Shown: positions 39,045 through 49,285 of the stretch, in pieces
Numbering within the stretch: position 1 is the stretch's first letter
How the letters are laid out: each line of letters opens with the position of its first letter
Source of the DNA: a virus
IMG/VR virus record: IMGVR_UViG_3300007539_000011
Location: 33,790-97,789 of that record
Strand: one strand, 5' to 3'
DNA length: 64,000 nucleotides
Notes under the pieces: model-generated
Database searches by the model: none
The model's input: the letters and a program-made list of their open reading frames with translations, nothing else
Told to the model about the DNA's origin: nothing
Made by a program: the position numbers and the translations under genes

Positions 39045-40427
39045 TCACCTGTACTGAGGCGGCCCGTAAGCAGGCATCTGCTGATACGCGCCTTGAGCGC
39101 CTCCACCTAAGTATCCCATTTGCTGAGCGGCACCTACGGCTTGGTTGACGTAAGGCATAGCCTGATTTACGTAGTTACCCGCTTGAGCGATGTAATTACT
39201 GTAGCTGTCCTGAGGCTCTTCTGAGCTGCCTAGGAACTTGTTTAATAAGTACCCGCCACCGAGAAGACCTAGACCTGCAATACCACCCTTTAGGTACCTA
39301 CCAGACCTAAGGGCCCTGGCCTCCGCCTGAGTAGCTCTGGTTTCTGCCGCTGTTAGCTTACCCGCAGCGGCAGCTTCTCTCTCTGCTGCCTTTCTTTCCG
39401 CCAGCGCCATGCGCCTCTTGTAGGCGGCCTCCTGCTTAGCTAGTGCCTCCTGTTGTTGGGCCGTATACTGATCTTTAAGCCTGGCTCTAGTCTCAGCAGT
39501 AGCATCCCGTACCGCTGTATTCTGCCTCTGCGTTCTTCTAGAAGGACCTCTTGATTGTTGCCTGGCCGGAGCTTGCTGCTGCGGCTGCACTGGCTGCTGC
39601 ACTGGAGCAGCTGGCTGCGCTGGAGCTGCTGGTCTTGTACTTGTAGCCGTAGGCGCGTTATTTTGGCGGCCCATAAAGTCTTTATAAATCCTATTACCAG
39701 AGCGCGACCCGACCATCCGCGCCCTTTCTCTTCCGCTCATGTTATTTATATTAGTATACTCTGCAGGACCTAACCCAAAGAAGCCCCTGCGGGCTACTCT
39801 TCCTGTGCCGCTATCCGCCATACTGTACTGATTAAAGCTCATAGCCGCAGTCTTAGCGCCTTCTAGAGTATCAAAGGTGCCGTAGGTATACGCGCCGGTT
39901 TTATCATAGGTAGTATACCTACCCTGATCCTCTACGACTACGCATCCGTTATCTAGGGTAAGCCTACCTAAAGTATGCCCCGAGACCTTCTCCATGATGG
40001 CAAGGTCATTGAGGGACATAGAAGCCTTTTTCTTTTGGCTGCTAGGTGGAGCCTCGCTGGCATACTTATTCTGAAGATATTCAGGGCTTTGTGAGTAATA
40101 GTCTTGCCACATCTCGTCACCATAATCCATCATCTGTTGAGGTAAGTAGACTTCGTCCCCTCGTCCTTGACCTAGAGTTTCCCGCACGTCGGCCTGAGCG
40201 CTGGATATTCCACCAGCTCCTCCCAGTATAGCCGCCGTCCTGTTGCCTCCTCGCAGTAGGGCTGAAGATCCTCCGCCTATAAGAGCACCAGTAATAGCTG
40301 CTCTACCTATGTCACGAGAGTCAAGGCCGCTAGAAAGAATTTCAGATGCGGCCCCAGAGGCTGCGCCTACGCCTGAACCTATGGCTCCGCTAAGCAGAGC
40401 CCTTCTTAAGTCTGACTGTTTACGCAT
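39045..40427 (-). CDS. Ala/Gly/Gln-rich protein, probable virion-associated (460 aa)
   Basis: The N-terminus is Gly/Ala/Ser rich and hydrophobic (residues 10-80). A small beta domain near residues 145-200 follows the basic KKKASMSLNDLAIMEKVSG, reminiscent of the recurring motif. Residues about 260-300 are Pro/Gln/Ala repeats. A coiled coil and a Gly-rich hydrophobic segment (GGIAGLGLLGGGYLLN) close the protein. No enzymatic motif. It follows the methyltransferase in the same minus-strand block. Confidence 0.6.
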   Translation of the reverse strand: MRKQSDLRRALLSGAIGSGVGAASGAASEILSSGLDSRDIGRAAITGALIGGGSSALLRGGNRTAAILGGAGGISSAQADVRETLGQGRGDEVYLPQQMMDYGDEMWQDYYSQSPEYLQNKYASEAPPSSQKKKASMSLNDLAIMEKVSGHTLGRLTLDNGCVVVEDQGRYTTYDKTGAYTYGTFDTLEGAKTAAMSFNQYSMADSGTGRVARRGFFGLGPAEYTNINNMSGRERARMVGSRSGNRIYKDFMGRQNNAPTATSTRPAAPAQPAAPVQQPVQPQQQAPARQQSRGPSRRTQRQNTAVRDATAETRARLKDQYTAQQQEALAKQEAAYKRRMALAERKAAEREAAAAGKLTAAETRATQAEARALRSGRYLKGGIAGLGLLGGGYLLNKFLGSSEEPQDSYSNYIAQAGNYVNQAMPYVNQAVGAAQQMGYLGGGAQGAYQQMPAYGPPQYR

Positions 40428-40433
40428 ATTTCC

Positions 40434-41252
40434 TCACAGCTGCCTAATGCTAGACTGCATCATCTTGGTAAAGTTTAGGTTTGTTTTACCAGTAAGCTCA
40501 ATGGCTCTGATGCCTGACTCTAGAGATACTACCTCATCACTGGGAGTATCTGTGCCGCATAGCGCATATTGGTAAGTACCTTGGTTAGTTAGCTTAAATA
40601 CATTACCAAAAATGTTCTTGTGATACTTAGTAATATTCCCGGCCTTTATAGCGTGCTCTCCTCCATCCCATATGTTTGAGCAAGAGATACCGCCTACAGC
40701 AAGGCAGCCCTTAACATCGTTCCAGAAGTATTGATTATTCTGGATATCTGCGGGGCCCTCCATATAGATATCTACATAGATTATATCGTATTTTTCTCCT
40801 GCCTTGTTCGCCTTCTGCAGGAACTTATTAGCGTCTTCCCCGACTAAACGAGTGTTAGCGTCAGGCATGAACTCAAAGTGCTCCTGGGCTACCTGGAACA
40901 TGAGCGGGCGAAGGTCTACTATAGTCTTCTGCACTTCTGGAAAGTTATCTATCCAGAACTTAGGAAGGCTGCCTCCGCCCATTCCCAAGAATAATACTTT
41001 CTTAGGACTAGGGTGAAGCGCCGACATAAAGCACATCTTTTGGATGTACTCTAGCTCAGGTATATTAGGGCTAGATAAATTAAGCCGGGATTGTACCCCG
41101 GTAGCGTTCTTCTTAGTGAACTGTATATCTTTGAAGATCCCGTCCCTAAGAAGCACAAAGACTTTGCCGTGAGAGTCTTCGTACTCATCTAGGTACTCTT
41201 CTTCTGCGTAGTACGCTACCTTAGTCTGGTAGTTAGGTTCTGCTCTAACTAG
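40434..41252 (-). CDS. Spermidine-synthase-like methyltransferase domain, likely made by -1 frameshift
   Basis: The domain has the Rossmann motif VLFLGMGGGSLPKFW, an acidic strand end (TIVDLRPLMFQVA), a DANKFL-like step and IIYVDIY, as in spermidine synthases and related methyltransferases. No ATG with a ribosome site begins the domain; the first GTG (41156) cuts off a good N-terminal part. The frame is open upstream to the heptamer A AAA AAC at the end of the 320-residue gene. A -1 slip would fuse 272 residues (starting LVRAEPNYQTKVAYYAEEEY) to it. Which amine or substrate is used is unknown. Confidence 0.7.
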   Translation of the reverse strand, partial: LVRAEPNYQTKVAYYAEEEYLDEYEDSHGKVFVLLRDGIFKDIQFTKKNATGVQSRLNLSSPNIPELEYIQKMCFMSALHPSPKKVLFLGMGGGSLPKFWIDNFPEVQKTIVDLRPLMFQVAQEHFEFMPDANTRLVGEDANKFLQKANKAGEKYDIIYVDIYMEGPADIQNNQYFWNDVKGCLAVGGISCSNIWDGGEHAIKAGNITKYHKNIFGNVFKLTNQGTYQYALCGTDTPSDEVVSLESGIRAIELTGKTNLNFTKMMQSSIRQL

Positions 41253-42211
41253 TTTTTTTTTAAGTTGGATTTCTTAGTAAAGTTATTTACTAGAGCAGCG
41301 GCTAGTGCGGCTACCCCCGCTGGAAGAGCCACGTTCTTGCCGATTGAAGACATCAAGTCCTGCGCGGGATCTCCAGTAGGGGCGGGGAACACAATATTGT
41401 TAGACACTGCTGCCCCGCTAGAAGCACCTGGGGACATAGAGACTGGAAGTTGGTTAACCGAGTGAGCTGCTTGCTGCCTAGCCTGCTCCTGCTGAGCAAG
41501 TAAAGTGTCAAGCTTAGTTCCTAGCCTGTCTACTTTGGCCATCGCAGACTCGGCGTTAAACCCGCTCTGCCTTCTAATCTGAGCGCGCTGCATGTGCCTG
41601 GGAATAGAAGGCTTATCCCTCATAGTAGCTACAGCAAGATCATTAATTTGATCCTGAAGGTACTGCAAGTTTAAGCCACCGTCCATTTGAGCTGTTTTCT
41701 TCCTAGCGCTGCCGTCAGCTTTCTGGTTCTTAGGCCAAAGCTCTCGGCGCGACCAGTAGTTAGCACTGAACTTATCGTCCTTGCCTTTGATCCCCGCACT
41801 ACGAGCAAGGTAGCTCTTCTTCGCCTTTGCAGAGTAGTTATGCTTATATCCGCGAGCACCAAAGTTAACTACTTTGACCTTGTCGCCCTTTTTAGCCAGC
41901 ACTCGCTTTTTGTACTTGCTACCCTTAGGTGCTGCCTTTGGCTTGTTGTACCCGGGAAAGATCTCGTCCCTGTATTTTAGCTTACCAGAGGGAAGCCGCT
42001 CTACTCCTTCTGGGGCTGCGGTTTTCTCTACTATTGAGCTTTCAGGAATACCTCTTTGCTCTGCTAAAACGCTCTTCCACTTACTTCCATACCTCTTTTT
42101 AAGGCTAAGTATATTCTTGTTATTTGGGTCATAACTCATGCCGCGGAGGGAAGCCTCCGCGGTCTTCTCAAGCAGATTCTGTAGTAGCCTAACACTAGGG
42201 TCGGTGCTCAT
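41249..42211 (-). CDS. Probable virion protein with N-terminal EKTA site (320 aa)
   Basis: It starts MSTDPSVRLLQNLLEKTAEA, so an L-L-E-K-T-A motif sits at residues 13-18, like a short targeting leader. A second, SIVEKTAAPEG, and KKTAQMDGG follow. Residues about 100-165 contain VVNFGARGYKHNYSAKAKKS and the NYWSRRELWP segment seen in hypothetical phage proteins. A Met/Gln coiled region and a hydrophobic C-terminus (VALPAGVAALAAALV) end the zero-frame form. Its 3' end carries the frameshift site. Confidence 0.7.
   Translation of the reverse strand: MSTDPSVRLLQNLLEKTAEASLRGMSYDPNNKNILSLKKRYGSKWKSVLAEQRGIPESSIVEKTAAPEGVERLPSGKLKYRDEIFPGYNKPKAAPKGSKYKKRVLAKKGDKVKVVNFGARGYKHNYSAKAKKSYLARSAGIKGKDDKFSANYWSRRELWPKNQKADGSARKKTAQMDGGLNLQYLQDQINDLAVATMRDKPSIPRHMQRAQIRRQSGFNAESAMAKVDRLGTKLDTLLAQQEQARQQAAHSVNQLPVSMSPGASSGAAVSNNIVFPAPTGDPAQDLMSSIGKNVALPAGVAALAAALVNNFTKKSNLKKN
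41252..41258 (-). promoter_or_regulatory. Candidate -1 frameshift site (A AAA AAC)
   Basis: The zero frame reads TTA AAA AAA AAC TAG, so the classical slippery heptamer ends at the stop. Downstream AGTTAG and CTAACT can form a small stem. A nine-A run also allows transcriptional slippage or a sequencing error. Confidence 0.65.
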
Positions 42212-42250: not shown

Positions 42251-45200
42251 TCAGTCGCCCAACTTGCTGCGCTTTTTACCTTTGTGCAAGCCGTGATCTG
42301 CGTGCTGCTCGCCTTCACGAGTAGCTTTGTTCTTCTTACGAATCGCCGCCTTTAGCTTATTGCGACCCTTCTTAGAAGACTTTAGCGCGTCTATAGACTT
42401 AGCTGGTAGGTAGACCCCTTTGCTCTTGGCTTCTTTAGTGGTTAGATCTTGCTTGCTGCGCATAGCTCTAGCTACCTGTAGTAGCTTAGCTGCGTTTTCG
42501 TTAGCTCTAGACACTATACCAGGATCCATCTCTCCTGTTTCTACGTTAAATTCATCCCCAGCAACCTGGACCCCGCCCCCTATACCGATGCCTTTAATCT
42601 CAGTATCCAGCTGGTTAGCCAGACCACCAAGTGCTAAAGCAGACCTGGGTGTGCCCGCACCAGATAGGAGAGCGTAAGGCTTGTACTGCTGGTTCTCTTT
42701 ATCTAGTGTCCTGTGAAGGAACTGCATTACTCTACCACTGGGACCATAGTTAAATACGGGGGTAGACAGAACCATAGCGTCTGCGTCGGTTAATCTTTTC
42801 TTATAATCATCGTACCAGTCTGTATCCCAGTCGTAGGTATCAGGCATGTCCCCCATATCACGCATGTCCATCCAGTCAACTTCGGCACCTTGGCTCTCCA
42901 GATAGTCCCTGTAAGTTTCTGCAAGTGCGCGAGACCTAGACAGCTCCTCAGGGTCGTTACCTGTGGAGCCGCTTAGGATAGCCACCCTAAGCCTGTTTTT
43001 TGCTGCCTCTGAGGCTAAAGATTTTGCAGCAGCAAGCTTTTTCAAATCAGATGCATATGTCATAGAACCCTCCTTTTTACGCTCACCGCTCCACTGCCAG
43101 TCTTGCTTAGTCCATTTCTTAAGCTTGTTATTCTTAGCAGTGGGCTTTTTGCCTTTGTACCTTCCGCCTGAGTCTTTATAGTACTTTACAGCTAGCTGAG
43201 CTGCACGAGCAGACCACTTGCCGCCCATCTTAGCCTTTGCCCGTGCCTTAGCTGCAGCCCACTTCTTAGGGTCTCGCTTAGTAGCGGTGCCTTTGGGCTT
43301 TTTGGCTTTGGAGGTCTTCTCGGAGCCGCCCATAGCGTATAACCCAGCAGCCCCTAATCCTGCGACGGGGATACCTAGCATTAAGGCTCTTCTTAGTTCC
43401 GGGTTGTTAGCAGCTGCAGCCGCGACTTCCTCTGCTGCAGAAGCCATTGTAGGCTGGCTAGCAACAGCTTCTCTTAGGGACTCTGTAGCCTGAGTACTTG
43501 GAGGAGGAGATACCTTAGAAAGAGCTGTGTCCACAGGCTGCATTCGCTGCTGTCTTTGCACTACCCTCTCAAGGGGGGTAGGCGTAACTACTGGAGTAGG
43601 GGCAACTACTGGGGTAGGAGCGACTGGAGCCCTGGAAACTGGAGTAGGAGCAACTACTGGGGTAGGCGTAACTACTGGAGTAGGGGAGACTGGAGCCCTG
43701 GAAACTGGAGTAGGAGCAACTACTGGGGTAGGCGTAACTACTGGAGTAGGGGCAACTACTGGAGTAGGCTTAGGCCTAACCACCGGAGCACTAAAGTCTA
43801 GCGCTAGTTGCTCACTTCTAGGGGCGACAGCCGCGGACTCCGCAGACGCAGAGACCCTCCGCACAGGGCCAGCTGCAGGCTCAAATAAGAATCTTTGCCC
43901 CCTCTCAGTTGTCTGAGTAGGCAGTACCACAGGAGCTGGGGCGGGGGCGGCAAGCTGTGCTTGGACCTGAGCTTTAGCTCTTTCTTGAGCTCTAGCCTTA
44001 TCTCTCCGTAGCCTGCGTATACGGTTGTCTTCCTTTACTCTGCGCATAGCCTCAGCTCTGGCACCCTCCGCAGCCTGGTACTCTCTCCTTAGTTGACCTA
44101 AGCTATCAGGAGATAAAGGCTTGAGGTTATGTTCCCACATATGGTTTATACCTAGTGGATCTTTGCTACTAAAGGTGAGCTCATTCCACCTCTGGTATAG
44201 AGGGTCCTGCTTTTGGACGTACATCTCTATTTCTCTCTGAAGAGGATGCGCTGCCCCTATTTGAGAGCTATGAATTCTTTCAGAACCTACGCGGCCCATA
44301 TTCAGCTCATTCTCTAGAATCTTAAGCCCTCCACCACCACTTCTACCCTTATTAAGAGAGTTGACTACGCTAGAGGTTATCTGCTCTGCTGATGCCTGAG
44401 GGTTAGCTGCCTTTGCGCCCTCAACGAGGCGCTGAACAGTCTCTAGCGCATTACCTTTGAGCTTAGCTTGCTTAGTTACACTGGCGTTCTTCTGCATAGA
44501 AGACGCTATAGCACTAGATAGTTTATAGTTATTTTTCATAGCAGTACCGTCTCCTCCCGCAAACACGGAGGCCGCTACCCCGCCCCCAGCCATACCTGTA
44601 CCAACGAGGGCATTCATCCAGTTAGCCCCAGTAGAACCTAGATCTTTGTACCGACTGTTTATGTACTTACGGCCTCCAGCCCCAAGAGCCAAGCCGCCGA
44701 TAGCTCCTGCGAGTGCTCCCTGAGCACCCTTGTTTTCTCCAGAGGCTGCGTACCCGGCGAGGGCCCCCGTAGCAGCGTCGAAAGCTCTGAACTTCATAGA
44801 AGCAGACTTGCGCATAACAGACTCCATCGGTGCTTGGCTATACAGCCTTTTAGGGGCTCCTCCAGTGCTTTTAGGGCCAAACCTCATAGTAGCCCCAAGT
44901 AGAGCACCTCGTGCCTTTTGCTTAGCTCCTTGAACTCGCTTCTCTATAGAGGCAGCTAGCCGGCCGCTAATAGTATTCTCCCGGTTCCATTGCCTACGCT
45001 GCTCCGGAGTCATACTCCTAAGCCTGTTTCTCTCGGCTATAGCTAGACTAGACCTAGTCCTAAGTTCTCTACCTAGACCAGCCTCTACTGCGCCAACAGA
45101 CGGAATTAAGGTCTGAGCTTTTTGGGCTACTTGATCAGTAAGGGTGGTCCCCCTCCGTATAGCCCCATCTTGGAGGGCATTCAGCACCTCTCGATGGCCT

Positions 45201-48200
45201 GCAGCTACTCCTTTATTCGCATAAGCGTCAATAGCCCTCTGGGTATCTTTAGCTACGTAGGACAAGTCATCTACCTTATCTATAGCTTGCCTGGCCCTAT
45301 TTGCTATATCTTTATGTACTGTTTGCCAGCCCCTAGGATCTAGTGTTCTGCCTAAGCGACTTCCTATATTTTCTAGGTTAAGAAGCAATCCCGGTAGCTC
45401 CGCCACTGCAAGGGTACCCTGAGGGCTAAGAGGCGCAGCCAAAGGGTTATACATAGCCATTACGTTAGCGGCAGTCTCAGATAAAGACGCATGCTGACTA
45501 AAAGGGTTTACGGCCCTAGACACCTCTCTTTGTATATTTTTAACTTTTCTAGGAGCCTGAGCAGTCTCCCAGAGTATCCTACCCAAGGCTTGCCTACGGG
45601 TAAGGTTATCCGTCTTCTGAACAAATGGCGTTATATCCTTAACGTGCCCGGCGCCTATCAGGCTGAGGTAAGCCTGCTCTAGAGTCTCTAAGTTTTTTTG
45701 CTTTATGTAGTTTCCTAGTACTCCCGCCGTTTTTGATCTGAGGCCTTTTTCTACTATAGCTTTTTTTAGGCGAGACCCCGCGTCCTCCCTAGCCATAACA
45801 AACTCCACTATCTGCTTGGAGTACAGGTTGTCGCTGGGGAAGTGTAGGCCAGCCTGAAGCCTGCTGTGCTGTATAGTGTGCCCTAGCTTCTCCCATAACT
45901 CCGAGTACTCAGGGTACTTCTCAGTGTAGAAGGCTTGTAGTCCGTAACCCATCATCGCATGGCCTGAAGGGTAGCTAGGTGTATCTGAGCTAGGAGGAGG
46001 CATTACATTTAGATTTACGCCATGGTACTCAGCGAGAGACCAAGGCCTAGGCCGCAGGAAGATGTACTTAAGGTCAAAGGCTATCTTGTTAAAGTCTTCG
46101 TAGATACCTTCCGCTTGGTCTTTGAGCGGATCGATACCTAGTTCTTCGCAGACTATGTAGAATAGCTGCTCTGGCTCTCGATCACACATCATCATAGTAG
46201 GTTCATCTATGATGGGGTTGTCCATGTGATACTTAACTTCTAGCAACTCTTCTCTAGTAGCCTCAGAGTCGTTAGGCGGATAGTCGGGCTTAGGTAGATA
46301 CTCGGTAGGTATAGTAAGAACTTTGCGCTTCTGCTTGATGTAGGGCTGGAAGTCCGGGGCTACTTCTGTGGTGTACTTTAGGTTGGCTATAGCACTAGCT
46401 AGCCCTGCGGTTTTTAGGGCACCACTAAACATTTCGGGCGTGTAACCAGATGAACTGTATGCTCCCTCGCGCATACCGGCATGGTACTTTTTTAGCCCTT
46501 CTTCCAGCGTTTTATTTTCTACTAGCTTGATTAGAGGCACATCCCCGTAAGAAACAGGGCCCCTAGTAATTACCATATCCGGGTTAGCCTTTAGTCCCTG
46601 TTTGAGCCACCCCTGCGACGCAACAGCAGATCTAGAAGCCATCAATTTCTCGGCTTGCTTGCGTGGTATGCCAGTTACAGAGATAGGGTATACACTAATA
46701 GCTGCAAAATCATTTAATGAGTGCGGTGTGCTCGCGGTAGGGGCTCGCCCAAGGCCTCCCCATCTAATCTGTTGTGGGCCAGGTGCAAAGGCAGGGTTTT
46801 GCACCCCCCTAGCAGTTATAGATCTCGCGCCCATTCCCATTGATGACTCTTGGAGTATTGCGTTTAGCTCCTCCAGGCCCAGCTTATATTCTTTACCTAG
46901 AGCTTCTGCCGAGGCAGAGGCGGGGTTGATCCCTCTGTTCTTTAGGTATCCCTCCAATTTCTCAGGAGATATAGTAAACATAGCATGAAAATCCACCAGG
47001 TCATCAGCACTCTGGGTAGGTGCAGTAGCTGGTGCGGGGGCATGAGCGGGAGCCGGCTTTGGTGGCGGTGGAGGAGGACCGGCAGGCTTTTTCTTTATAG
47101 CGCTAGCTAAGCCTTTTAGCTTACCCCTGCCTAGGTACGCTCCGGCAGCAGTTAAACCAGCTCCAGCTAACCAAGGTGCCCAAGAAGACTCTTGCGGTTG
47201 GGCAGGGCTGTAAGCCTTAGGCTGGCTAGTATTATTGCCCCTGTAAGCCTTGTAAGCCCTGTAACCTCCGTAACCAAGTGCTCCGGCAGCGGCAGCTCCT
47301 GCTGCGTAAGCACCTAGGCCTGGGCCTTGGTTAGTAGTTTGGGCGCTAGCTGTTTTCTCAATTATAGCACTAGCTAGCCCTGCGGTTTTTAGGTGAGCAG
47401 GTAGTCCTGCAAGGAAACTATCTATCCTACCTGCCACTCCTTTCTGACCTTGCTGCATTAAGTAGGGAATAACATTGTCCTGTAATCCTAGGCTATCTTG
47501 CCACTCAGTATGCCCTCTTTTACGCAGAGTTTCCCTGAGCACCCTCTTATGGTACAGGCCCGTTTTACCCGGGTTTACGGCTGCCATAGCAGAATTTGCA
47601 ATATGAGGAATTGCGCCTTGCCTGCCATACAGAGCCGCGTACGCATCCTGCACTGGAAAGCTAGCGTCTCGGTTTCTAAGGGCGCCTAAGCCATAATATG
47701 CTTCAAACTCTTTTTGCTTGGCATCTAAGACTTTTCCTAGCGCCTCTTGGTCCTGAGAAAACCTTTTTGCAGAAGCATCCGCTTTAGCTTGGTCAAACTT
47801 AAATGGGTCCTTACCCCTTACGTAAGAGCTAGCTTGTTCTTCAGTGTAGCCCATGCGCTTAGTAAGATGCTGGTGCAGCTTCTGAGAATCCGACATGGCA
47901 GCAGTGCCAGCAGTGCCAGCAGTGCCAGCAGGCTTCTTCTTTATAGCGCTAGCTAAGCCTTTTAGCTTACCTCTACCTAAGTAAGCTCCGGCAGCAGTTA
48001 GGCCAGCCCCAGCTAACCAAGGTGCCCAAGAAGACTCTTGCGGTTGGGCAGGGCTGTAAGCCTTAGGCTGGCTAGTATTATTGCCTCTGTAAGCCTTGTA
48101 AGCCCTGTAACCTCCGTAACCAAGTGCTCCGGCAGCGGCAGCTCCTGCTGCGTAAGCACCTAGACCTGGTCCTTGGTTAGTAGTTTGGGCGCTAGCTGTT

Positions 48201-49285
48201 TTCTCGTACTTCTCCACATCAACTCCCCAGTTCCTCAGAGCAGCAGCTCTACGCTTAGTAGGGTTCTTTAAGTACTGAGCTAAGTGCCTAGCCTTAAAGC
48301 TCTTCCAGCGCTTGATCTGCCTCTCATCATCGTCTGTACGGCGTCCCCTTGAGTACCTCTCGTACCACTGCAACCAGCCCTTAGGGTCTTGCTTATTGAT
48401 CCAGTGCTCAGGCCACTCCTTCATGGAAGCTTCACTCGGAGCGTCACCGTACACTTGGTCGTAGACTCCTAGCTCCTTTAGTTGCTCTGGAGATAAGTCT
48501 GGGGTGAAGTCGGATTCACTAGCACTCTTCTCCAGTATGGCCCTATGTAGCTTAAGCCTACCAGCAGCTTCTTCTGCAAGCAGTGCCTCATATACATCTA
48601 GCTCTTCAGAGCCAAGAACCTCAGGAGCTTCTTTAGAGATAAACTCGCTACGCATTAGCTGAGGCCCCCACTCAAAATTAGAGGGATCAAGCTCGTATAA
48701 GTGACCCTTGCGTCCTTTGTAGACCTTCTCAAAAGCCCCTGGGTACTGCTCCGTCATATGAAGAGTAGGATCACCATTATAGGTACTTTGCTCAAAATCG
48801 GAGTCTCTCCAAGGTGCCATAAATGAGATAGCTTGTGCTCTACTAGGGGTACCAAACACTACAGGCTCATCTTCTGCTAAGTAGTGAGGCCTAGCTTCAA
48901 ACTTATCTATCTTATTCTGACTTCCGTGGTAGATACGAGAAGGGGCTTCAGGGGCATCAAATTGTTTTTGATACTCTATTTTTTCCTGCACGGCTTTTCT
49001 AAGTGCGTTCGCCTCTTCTTCAGACATATCTGAGTAGGTAGCAGAGGTCTTCTCGGCTATAGCCTCAGCCAGCTTATCCTTCTTGCTTCTATTAGTATCC
49101 CTACTGACTACTCGCCAGTTGCTAGGGTCGTTACTACCACCTCGGCTCAAAGGCACTTTGTGGTCTACTTCTTGGCCAGGCTTAGTGTCAGAGTTTCTAT
49201 TAGCCTTGTTACGCATGGCTCTGCGCTTCTTTTGCTCTGGCTTAGAATGATACTCTTTGTATTCTTTCTTGTAGTCTCTAGCCAT
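42251..49285 (-). CDS. Giant modular polyprotein: HNH, ADP-ribosyltransferase-like, PAP2 and FMN-reductase-like modules (2344 aa)
   Basis: Domains in order: HNH nuclease (residues about 38-66, EVDHKVPLSRGGSNDPSNW); ADP-ribosyltransferase-like (117-215, IYHGSQN, FGTPSRAQAISF, GHLYELDP); a module with DPKGWLQWYERYSRGRR and DDERQIKRW (265-358); Gly/Tyr spacer copies at 361-450 and 644-733 around an unknown module; a PAP2 phosphatase (1070-1165) with KYIFLRPRP, YPSGH and SRLQAGLHFPSD; Pro/Thr-Val repeats (about 1836-1905); an SARAAQLAVKYY/KWTKQDW module (about 2030-2070); and an NADPH-dependent FMN-reductase-like flavodoxin fold (from about 2095, VAILSGSTGND, STPVFNYGPSG). Modules are separated by AI-x-E-K-T/S-A motifs, candidate cleavage points. 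ATG follows CGGAGGAACC. Confidence 0.75.
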   Translation of the reverse strand: MARDYKKEYKEYHSKPEQKKRRAMRNKANRNSDTKPGQEVDHKVPLSRGGSNDPSNWRVVSRDTNRSKKDKLAEAIAEKTSATYSDMSEEEANALRKAVQEKIEYQKQFDAPEAPSRIYHGSQNKIDKFEARPHYLAEDEPVVFGTPSRAQAISFMAPWRDSDFEQSTYNGDPTLHMTEQYPGAFEKVYKGRKGHLYELDPSNFEWGPQLMRSEFISKEAPEVLGSEELDVYEALLAEEAAGRLKLHRAILEKSASESDFTPDLSPEQLKELGVYDQVYGDAPSEASMKEWPEHWINKQDPKGWLQWYERYSRGRRTDDDERQIKRWKSFKARHLAQYLKNPTKRRAAALRNWGVDVEKYEKTASAQTTNQGPGLGAYAAGAAAAGALGYGGYRAYKAYRGNNTSQPKAYSPAQPQESSWAPWLAGAGLTAAGAYLGRGKLKGLASAIKKKPAGTAGTAGTAAMSDSQKLHQHLTKRMGYTEEQASSYVRGKDPFKFDQAKADASAKRFSQDQEALGKVLDAKQKEFEAYYGLGALRNRDASFPVQDAYAALYGRQGAIPHIANSAMAAVNPGKTGLYHKRVLRETLRKRGHTEWQDSLGLQDNVIPYLMQQGQKGVAGRIDSFLAGLPAHLKTAGLASAIIEKTASAQTTNQGPGLGAYAAGAAAAGALGYGGYRAYKAYRGNNTSQPKAYSPAQPQESSWAPWLAGAGLTAAGAYLGRGKLKGLASAIKKKPAGPPPPPPKPAPAHAPAPATAPTQSADDLVDFHAMFTISPEKLEGYLKNRGINPASASAEALGKEYKLGLEELNAILQESSMGMGARSITARGVQNPAFAPGPQQIRWGGLGRAPTASTPHSLNDFAAISVYPISVTGIPRKQAEKLMASRSAVASQGWLKQGLKANPDMVITRGPVSYGDVPLIKLVENKTLEEGLKKYHAGMREGAYSSSGYTPEMFSGALKTAGLASAIANLKYTTEVAPDFQPYIKQKRKVLTIPTEYLPKPDYPPNDSEATREELLEVKYHMDNPIIDEPTMMMCDREPEQLFYIVCEELGIDPLKDQAEGIYEDFNKIAFDLKYIFLRPRPWSLAEYHGVNLNVMPPPSSDTPSYPSGHAMMGYGLQAFYTEKYPEYSELWEKLGHTIQHSRLQAGLHFPSDNLYSKQIVEFVMAREDAGSRLKKAIVEKGLRSKTAGVLGNYIKQKNLETLEQAYLSLIGAGHVKDITPFVQKTDNLTRRQALGRILWETAQAPRKVKNIQREVSRAVNPFSQHASLSETAANVMAMYNPLAAPLSPQGTLAVAELPGLLLNLENIGSRLGRTLDPRGWQTVHKDIANRARQAIDKVDDLSYVAKDTQRAIDAYANKGVAAGHREVLNALQDGAIRRGTTLTDQVAQKAQTLIPSVGAVEAGLGRELRTRSSLAIAERNRLRSMTPEQRRQWNRENTISGRLAASIEKRVQGAKQKARGALLGATMRFGPKSTGGAPKRLYSQAPMESVMRKSASMKFRAFDAATGALAGYAASGENKGAQGALAGAIGGLALGAGGRKYINSRYKDLGSTGANWMNALVGTGMAGGGVAASVFAGGDGTAMKNNYKLSSAIASSMQKNASVTKQAKLKGNALETVQRLVEGAKAANPQASAEQITSSVVNSLNKGRSGGGGLKILENELNMGRVGSERIHSSQIGAAHPLQREIEMYVQKQDPLYQRWNELTFSSKDPLGINHMWEHNLKPLSPDSLGQLRREYQAAEGARAEAMRRVKEDNRIRRLRRDKARAQERAKAQVQAQLAAPAPAPVVLPTQTTERGQRFLFEPAAGPVRRVSASAESAAVAPRSEQLALDFSAPVVRPKPTPVVAPTPVVTPTPVVAPTPVSRAPVSPTPVVTPTPVVAPTPVSRAPVAPTPVVAPTPVVTPTPLERVVQRQQRMQPVDTALSKVSPPPSTQATESLREAVASQPTMASAAEEVAAAAANNPELRRALMLGIPVAGLGAAGLYAMGGSEKTSKAKKPKGTATKRDPKKWAAAKARAKAKMGGKWSARAAQLAVKYYKDSGGRYKGKKPTAKNNKLKKWTKQDWQWSGERKKEGSMTYASDLKKLAAAKSLASEAAKNRLRVAILSGSTGNDPEELSRSRALAETYRDYLESQGAEVDWMDMRDMGDMPDTYDWDTDWYDDYKKRLTDADAMVLSTPVFNYGPSGRVMQFLHRTLDKENQQYKPYALLSGAGTPRSALALGGLANQLDTEIKGIGIGGGVQVAGDEFNVETGEMDPGIVSRANENAAKLLQVARAMRSKQDLTTKEAKSKGVYLPAKSIDALKSSKKGRNKLKAAIRKKNKATREGEQHADHGLHKGKKRSKLGD
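43570..43780 (-). repeat. Pro-Thr-Pro-Val-Val tandem repeats in polyprotein gene
   Basis: Units encoding VAPTPVVTPTPV and SRAPV recur about a dozen times, with near-identical nucleotide copies of 36 and 72 bases, forming a flexible linker. Confidence 0.85.
47087..47356 (-). repeat. Spacer module copy 2 in polyprotein gene
   Basis: About 270 bases encoding EKTASAQTTNQGPGLGAYAA through GLASAIKKKPAG are nearly identical to 47936-48205. The product includes a Gly/Ala hydrophobic segment and a Tyr-Lys step (GYGGYRAYKAYRG). Confidence 0.9.
47936..48205 (-). repeat. Spacer module copy 1 in polyprotein gene
   Basis: First copy of the 270-base direct repeat (see 47087-47356), followed at 47899-47935 by a 9-base tandem repeat coding for Ala-Gly-Thr. 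Confidence 0.9.

What the first reader, a model, noticed from the sequence alone, without database searches (positions are those of the whole stretch)
42251..49285. A 2344-residue polyprotein that strings enzymes together
One gene joins an HNH nuclease, an ADP-ribosyltransferase-like domain, a DPxGW module, a PAP2 phosphatase and an FMN-reductase-like domain through repeated Gly/Ala spacers and Pro-Thr linkers. Modules are bounded by motifs such as AIAEKT (residues 75-80), AILEKS (249-254), AIIEKT (640-645) and AIVEK (1176-1180). The I-x-E part matches the (L/I)-x-E rule of the T4 prohead protease, which trims packaged internal proteins including the ADP-ribosyltransferase Alt. A packaged, cleaved cargo set injected with DNA is the inference. 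No such chain is known to me.
Basis: partly seen in the sequence, partly recalled or inferred. Interest (0 to 1): 0.9.

Follow-up and report, generated by a model that had tools for sequence, protein, structure and literature searches.

The report
Phage enzyme chain cut at KxAS sites
A virus of bacteria encodes one 2344-residue protein that strings several unrelated enzymes together, punctuated by the same short K-x-A-S motif that the virus's capsid-maturation protease carries at its own likely self-processing site, which suggests that the chain is cut apart in the virus head and delivered with the DNA.

Summary
The 2344-aa ORF is real, and an identical gene lies in a longer contig of the same phage. 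HNH, PAP2 (all three catalytic motifs) and FMN-reductase modules are confirmed; the ADP-ribosyltransferase call is not.

The boundary rule needs correcting. T4's (L/I)-x-E is not enriched at module junctions. The recurring motif is K-x-A/S-(S/G). I found the phage's head maturation protease outside the window. Across 36 diverse relatives the K of this motif is an invariant column, just where a disordered N-terminal arm meets the catalytic fold. The motif recurs in the scaffold-like protein and near the N-terminus of 30 of 32 major capsid proteins. It is enriched about 11-fold in head genes and 4-5-fold in cargo genes, but not significantly in tail or replication genes or in T4.

A distant relative has a different chain (PAP2, unknown, NUDIX, kinase-like, YHGS, DPxGW) punctuated the same way. 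Several modules occur elsewhere as separate genes carrying the motif.

Best reading: a polyvalent protein that works as a polyprotein, cut by the head protease and packaged as cargo. Cutting and packaging are inferred, not shown. It is a new variant of a known kind.

The parts
42251..49285 (-). Whole enzyme chain, 2344 aa, single ORF
   Evidence: identical in G001
49049..49285 (-). Module 1, res 1-79: HNH nuclease, ends at site AIAEK-TSA (K79)
   Evidence: Pfam HNH 8.8e-6, phrog_4590 1.5e-15
48527..49048 (-). Module 2, res 80-253: YHGS module (ART-like in motif only), ends at AILEK-SAS (K253)
   Evidence: 25-27% identical to YHGS modules of the G002 chain; no HMM or fold support
48200..48526 (-). 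Module 3, res 254-362: DPxGW module, ends at KYEK-TAS (K362)
   Evidence: 77-87% identical in G002 and G003; preceded by NK-QAS in G002; a lone gene in Cobetia phage Carin-5
47387..48199 (-). Res 363-633: Gly/Ala spacer copy 1 plus unknown module, ends at HLK-TAG (K633)
   Evidence: 94-aa duplication; no family
46412..47386 (-). Res 634-958: 11-aa linker TAGLASAIIEK (634-644), Gly/Ala spacer copy 2 and unknown module, ends at ALK-TAG (K958)
   Evidence: site scores; duplication
45731..46411 (-). Res 959-1185: PAP2 / acid phosphatase module, ends at RSK-TAG (K1185)
   Evidence: Pfam PAP2 6.4e-8, catalytic motifs, PDB 7f18, first module of the G002 chain
44807..45730 (-). Res 1186-1493: unknown module, ends at VMRK-SAS (K1493)
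   Evidence: site score 10.9
44489..44806 (-). Res 1494-1599: Gly-rich module, ends at SMQK-NAS (K1599)
   Evidence: site score 9.3
43316..44488 (-). Res 1600-1990: unknown module with Pro-Thr-Val linker and hydrophobic tail, ends at SEK-TSK
   Evidence: phrog_15511 weak
43037..43315 (-). Res 1991-2083: KWSAR module, ends at DLKK-LAA (K2083); in-frame ATG (M2075) behind AGGAGG, a possible relic or internal start
   Evidence: 93% identical to separate genes L003:3576-4157 and L004:224-799
42434..43036 (-). Res 2084-2284: FMN-reductase module, ends near TTK-EAK (K2284)
   Evidence: Pfam FMN_red 4.2e-14
42251..42433 (-). Res 2285-2344 and stop: small basic C-terminal module
   Evidence: 69-79% identical to the end of separate genes in G002 and G003
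41249..42211 (-). Next gene, 320 aa, with sites LLEK-TAE and IVEK-TAA
   Evidence: phrog_220 'minor head protein and DNA pilot' 1.9e-20
39045..40427 (-). 460-aa Gly/Ala-rich protein of the same block with sites QNK-YAS and IMEK-VSG

Best explanation
The gene encodes a polyvalent protein that works as a polyprotein. About a dozen modules (HNH nuclease, YHGS module, DPxGW module, PAP2 phosphatase, a basic KWSAR module, an FMN reductase and others), with Gly/Ala spacers, are made as one late product. The chain is drawn into the prohead together with the scaffold. The phage's head maturation protease then cuts it at K-x-A/S-(S/G) sites, releasing separate enzymes that stay in the capsid and enter the cell with the DNA. 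Shown by sequence: the chain, its confirmed modules, the sites, the protease and the shared motif. Inferred: that the motif is the cleavage site, that the chain is packaged, and that the products act early in the host. The exact scissile bond (after K or after A) is not known.
For: (1) Head maturation protease in the same phage (phrog_18299 2.6e-12) beside the major capsid gene. (2) In 36 diverse relatives the motif K is invariant and the A at least 90% conserved, outside the catalytic domain; 41 of 41 non-redundant proteases have K-x-A/S 33-43 residues before the NxNGDxF motif, while such windows hold one 21% of the time elsewhere in these proteins. (3) In the predicted structure residues 1-39 are of very low confidence and the fold begins at about 41, right at K38-V-A-S41. 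(4) The same motif is near the N-terminus of 30 of 32 capsid proteins and recurs about 13 times in a 206-aa scaffold-like protein. (5) K-x-A-S is enriched 12.5-fold in head genes and 4.9-fold in the cargo block, with no significant excess in tail, replication or T4 genes. (6) A site matrix built only from other phages' proteases finds 8 strong sites in this chain (1.3 expected, 0 of 400 shuffles) and 5 in part A of the G002 chain (0.6 expected, 0 of 400). (7) Sites fall at homology-defined junctions: 6 of 10 within 15 aa, p=0.003. (8) Modules are exchanged between chains and stand-alone genes, with a K-x-A motif at the edge. (9) The cultured relative Arash, with a 49%-identical protease, has RNA polymerase subunits and the protease in purified virions by MS.
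Against: No cleavage has been observed for any member. The motif is short, so single matches may be chance; part B of the G002 chain alone is weak. With the stricter site threshold the junction test is not significant (3 of 10, p=0.1). The KWSAR start and C-terminal module sites score low. The Arash proteome lists 116 proteins, so some may be carry-over, as its authors say. The chain itself has no capsid-targeting N-terminus that I could recognise. None of 46 other protease-bearing records, many of them fragments, holds this chain's enzyme modules.
Confidence: 0.68

Rival explanations
1. A polyvalent protein that is packaged and injected whole; K-x-A-S elements are only inter-domain linkers left over when separate cargo genes, each with its own processed N-terminus, were fused.
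For: Two internal in-frame ATGs behind Shine-Dalgarno-like sequences (M1491, M2075) lie just before K-x-A sites, and several modules are separate genes elsewhere, so fusion did happen. Phage N4 virion RNAP is packaged unprocessed (PMC5512222).
Against: Sites remain close to the consensus in both chains; pure relics should decay. The head protease is present in the same genome.
Confidence: 0.15
2. The K-x-A motif is a docking or packaging tag for the scaffold or protease, not a cut site, and the chain is retained in the head by many tags.
For: Would equally explain enrichment in head and cargo proteins.
Against: One copy sits at the disordered-to-folded boundary of the protease and one near the capsid N-terminus, where maturation cuts occur in T4, SPN3US and HK97 type phages; a 206-aa scaffold-like protein with about 13 copies fits degradation better than tagging.
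Confidence: 0.1
3. An ordinary multienzyme made in the cell late in infection and not packaged; module order is accidental gene fusion.
For: HNH, PAP2 and FMN reductase can serve intracellular roles; the DPxGW homologue in a Cobetia phage is a lone gene among small hypothetical genes.
Against: K-x-A-S is not significantly enriched in replication genes; the neighbour gene matches a minor head / DNA pilot family.
Confidence: 0.07

Closest known systems
Polyvalent proteins (Iyer et al. 2017, PMC5512222)
   Same: 2-15 biochemically unrelated domains in one phage-encoded polypeptide, predicted to be injected with DNA; some processed before packaging (P1 DdrB, DarA); the authors draw the analogy to polyproteins.
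   Different: There processing is assigned to peptidase domains embedded in the chain (zincins, or an assemblin-like peptidase at the C-terminus). Here no peptidase family was detected in the chain; likely sites of the separate head maturation protease sit between modules. PAP2 is not mentioned in that paper's main text.
T4 internal proteins and Alt, cut by gp21
   Same: Head-packaged proteins processed by an assemblin-fold prohead protease and injected.
   Different: T4 uses an (L/I)-x-E rule and single proteins; here K-x-A-S and a multi-enzyme chain.
SPN3US ejection proteins and protease gp245 (PMC10052503)
   Same: Ejected proteins, capsid and portal cut by a self-cleaving prohead protease; long propeptides removed by several cuts.
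   Different: Cut C-terminal to A-x-E; cuts remove propeptides, not modules of a polyprotein.
Salmonella phage Arash (PMC10585845)
   Same: Cultured relative: about 49% identical protease with LTKQAA in its N-terminal arm, K-E-A near the capsid N-terminus, RNA polymerase subunits in the virion.
   Different: No comparable chain was recognised in the parts of the genome examined; cleavage is not discussed in the paper.

Membership tests
Polyvalent proteins | Several disparate enzymatic domains in one phage polypeptide | tested here: met
   HNH, PAP2, FMN_red confirmed; NUDIX and P-loop domains in the G002 chain
Polyvalent proteins | Typical domain repertoire (ART, zincin peptidase, ArdC-N, ParB-like and so on) | tested here: inconclusive
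   YHGS module may be ART but has no HMM or fold support; no peptidase family detected in the chain
Polyvalent proteins | Injected with the DNA | not testable with these tools
   needs virion proteomics and an ejection assay
T4 prohead protease substrates | (L/I)-x-E cleavage rule at boundaries | tested here: not met
   4 of 10 junctions, p=0.74; [ILVM].EK 40 vs 40.1 expected
SPN3US/phiKZ-type substrates | A-x-E or S-x-E cleavage rule | not tested
   not counted; the motif conserved in these proteases is K-x-A-S
Head maturation proteases (assemblin-like superfamily) | Homology to an annotated head maturation protease and gene position by the capsid gene | tested here: met
   phrog_18299 2.6e-12; capsid gene (phrog_2522) close by
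Head maturation proteases (assemblin-like superfamily) | Assemblin fold with conserved Ser/His | tested here: inconclusive
   invariant H101 and S152; fold match to T4 gp21 5jbl (prob 0.87, E 0.064) and HCMV protease (prob 0.80) does not reach E 0.001 and is mixed with MlaD hits
K-x-A-S protease substrates (proposed here) | Motif shared with the protease's own N-terminal site | tested here: met
   site matrix from other phages, 8 hits vs 1.3 expected
K-x-A-S protease substrates (proposed here) | Actual cleavage | not testable with these tools
   needs a protease assay or N-terminomics

The most novel reading that the evidence does not exclude
A large clade of tailed phages has a head maturation protease with a K-x-A-S specificity that I did not find described in the papers I could search, and some members use it to run a true polyprotein strategy: a set of enzymes is encoded as one swappable chain, imported into the prohead as a unit, and released by the same protease that matures the capsid, so that many different effectors are packaged in fixed stoichiometry.
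Probability: 0.5. Interest if true: 0.85.

Novelty: new variant of a known kind. Interest (0 to 1): 0.72.

Why it matters
How phages load many different enzymes into a capsid is poorly understood. A chain cut by the capsid protease would explain fixed-ratio loading and easy module exchange, and gives a sequence rule (K-x-A-S) that predicts processed head and cargo proteins across a wide group of uncultured phages, starting with the cultured phage Arash. It turns many unknown genes of these phages into predicted packaged, processed effectors.

Tried and rejected
T4 (L/I)-x-E as boundary rule: not enriched. A first 12-column site matrix was overfitted, so I used a 6-column one. ART identification by HMM, PDB sequence and AlphaFold with three sequences: no support. 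Cellular genomes: no relative. Phage records: no DNA match; only the DPxGW module matches. 46 other protease-bearing records: none of the chain's modules except one weak hit to the low-complexity part. Scan of 7 close and 2 more distant relatives for other multi-enzyme chains with sites: only proteins that look like head proteins, RNA polymerase, replication or other single-function proteins came up. PDB sequence search with the protease profile: nothing.

Full report
The observation. The ORF at 42251-49285 (-) is open over 2344 codons and begins with ATG behind GGAGG. The window is the last 64 kb of a 97.8 kb virus record. The same phage is held as a 133 kb contig, G001 (IMGVR_UViG_3300025674_000019), identical over the window, so the gene is not peculiar to one contig, though the two could share reads. 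FMN_red, PAP2 and HNH modules are supported by Pfam. The PAP2 module keeps all three catalytic motifs and is closest to acid phosphatases in the PDB. The DPxGW module is strongly conserved but matches no Pfam or PHROG family. The ADP-ribosyltransferase call rests only on a YHGS motif; HMMs and a low-confidence model give no support.

The boundary motif. In the whole proteome of the phage [ILVM].EK occurs as often as expected (40 vs 40.1), while EK[TV][AS] (21 vs 3.0) and K[TVLEIQN]AS (37 vs 7.7, sd 2.6) are far in excess. At ten homology-defined module edges [LI].E is at chance level (p=0.74), whereas K-x-A sites fall within 15 residues of six (p=0.003). These edges are not fully independent (the KWSAR end and FMN_red start share one site) and the result depends on threshold (3 of 10 at the stricter one, p=0.1), so I treat this as moderate evidence on its own.

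The protease. In G001 the gene at L027:14273-15757, outside the window and beyond the end of its record, matches a head maturation protease family (phrog_18299, 2.6e-12) and lies near the major capsid gene (phrog_2522, 3.3e-5). A scan of IMG/VR with it and its G002 homologue gave 57 loci. In an alignment of 36 of these the only invariant residue before the catalytic domain is the K of K-x-A-S; its A is at least 90% conserved. In 41 of 41 non-redundant proteases the motif lies 33-43 residues before the NxNGDxF motif, against a 21% chance level for a window of that size. The predicted structure is of very low confidence for residues 1-39 and ordered from about 41, so the motif K38-V-A-S41 is at the joint of a propeptide-like arm and the enzyme. 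Fold comparison gives T4 gp21 (prob 0.87) and herpesvirus proteases among weak hits, none below E 0.001. The invariant H101 and S152 fit the catalytic pair of that superfamily (inference).

Other carriers of the motif. K-x-A or K-x-S lies near the N-terminus of 30 of 32 capsid proteins of these phages, for example GRVKEA, FLEKVS, HLDKVA, NVKLAQ. A 206-aa scaffold-like protein between protease and capsid genes has about 13 copies. By gene group, K-x-A-S is enriched 12.5-fold in the G001 head cluster, 10.7-fold in that of G002, 11.9-fold in that of Arash, 4.9-fold and 3.8-fold in the cargo regions of G001 and G002, but only 1.6-1.7-fold (not significant) in tail and replication genes, and not significantly in the T4 late region. 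This is the pattern expected of a site read inside the prohead.

The chain under this rule. A site matrix built from the proteases of other phages, with those of G001 and G002 left out, finds eight strong sites in the chain (1.3 expected, none of 400 shuffles reached it). Together with weaker ones they divide it into HNH, YHGS module, DPxGW, spacer plus unknown, spacer plus unknown, PAP2, unknown, Gly-rich, unknown with Pro-Thr linker, KWSAR, FMN reductase and a C-terminal module.

Comparative evidence. The distant relative G002 (147 kb; IMGVR 3300037631_006232) has another chain, interrupted by the contig ends: at least 1502 aa at one end (PAP2, unknown, NUDIX, three Walker A kinase-like domains, YHGS) and 582 aa at the other (kinase-like, YHGS, NUDIX, DPxGW). 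Its part A has five strong sites (0.6 expected, 0 of 400), and the NUDIX and kinase-like domains begin shortly after such sites. The second module of that chain is a separate gene in G003 that begins MNDRHLSQKTAG and has KTSS after the module. The KWSAR and C-terminal modules are one separate gene in G002 and G003 with K-x-A before each. Thus modules move between chains and single genes and carry the motif at their edge in both settings. The exact duplication of a 94-aa spacer, and an in-frame ATG behind AGGAGG just before the FMN module, point to growth of the chain by duplication and fusion.

Packaging. This is inferred. Support: the neighbouring gene, also with K-T-A sites, matches a minor head and DNA pilot family. 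The cultured relative Arash, whose protease is about 49% identical over the catalytic region, carries RNA polymerase beta (its most abundant protein by spectra) and beta' subunits and the protease in purified virions (PMC10585845), although its list of 116 proteins may include carry-over, as its authors say.

What is known. Polyvalent proteins (PMC5512222) are the right class: many enzymes in one phage protein, thought to be injected, some processed before packaging, with an explicit comparison to polyproteins. In that work processing is ascribed to peptidase domains within the chain. SPN3US shows ejection proteins cut by a prohead protease after A-x-E, removing propeptides (PMC10052503). A chain with sites of a separate head protease between enzyme modules, and a K-x-A-S rule, I did not find in the searched literature; most subscription papers are not in that library.

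Verdict. Real and unusual; a new variant of polyvalent proteins. Cleavage, packaging and function in the host remain to be tested.

Noticed in passing
L028:8573-12940 (-) and L028:5766-7529 (-) in G001; Arash gp206, gp216: The phage encodes a split multi-subunit RNA polymerase: a 1455-aa protein with Rpb2 (beta) domains followed by Rpb1 domains 1-2 (beta' N-terminal half), and a 587-aa protein with a further RNA polymerase match, next to the head genes.
   Followed up: partly
L088, L089, L090 protease genes: Three protease genes appear to be interrupted by an intein-like insertion directly after the active-site SMGC/SMAC motif (e.g. SMGCFIAGTLITMADG).
   Followed up: no
L003:3011-3541, L015:6642-7498, L004:3338-3898: Small G002/G003 proteins share an N-terminus like YYxLGxQxALEEAGLxKxA, ending in K-x-A; looks like a capsid-targeting propeptide.
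   Followed up: no
window 40434-41156 (-): Spermidine synthase-like gene inside the cargo block (Pfam Spermine_synth 4.6e-5).
   Followed up: no
L003:5087-6559: A G002 gene with two NUDIX-like modules separated by QQKTASDK, and NKTSSHT after the second: a second, smaller chain of the same type.
   Followed up: partly
L133:6016-9726 (Mycobacterium phage Tonenili): In this mycobacteriophage the homologous protease is the N-terminal part of a 1236-aa protein just before the capsid gene.
   Followed up: no
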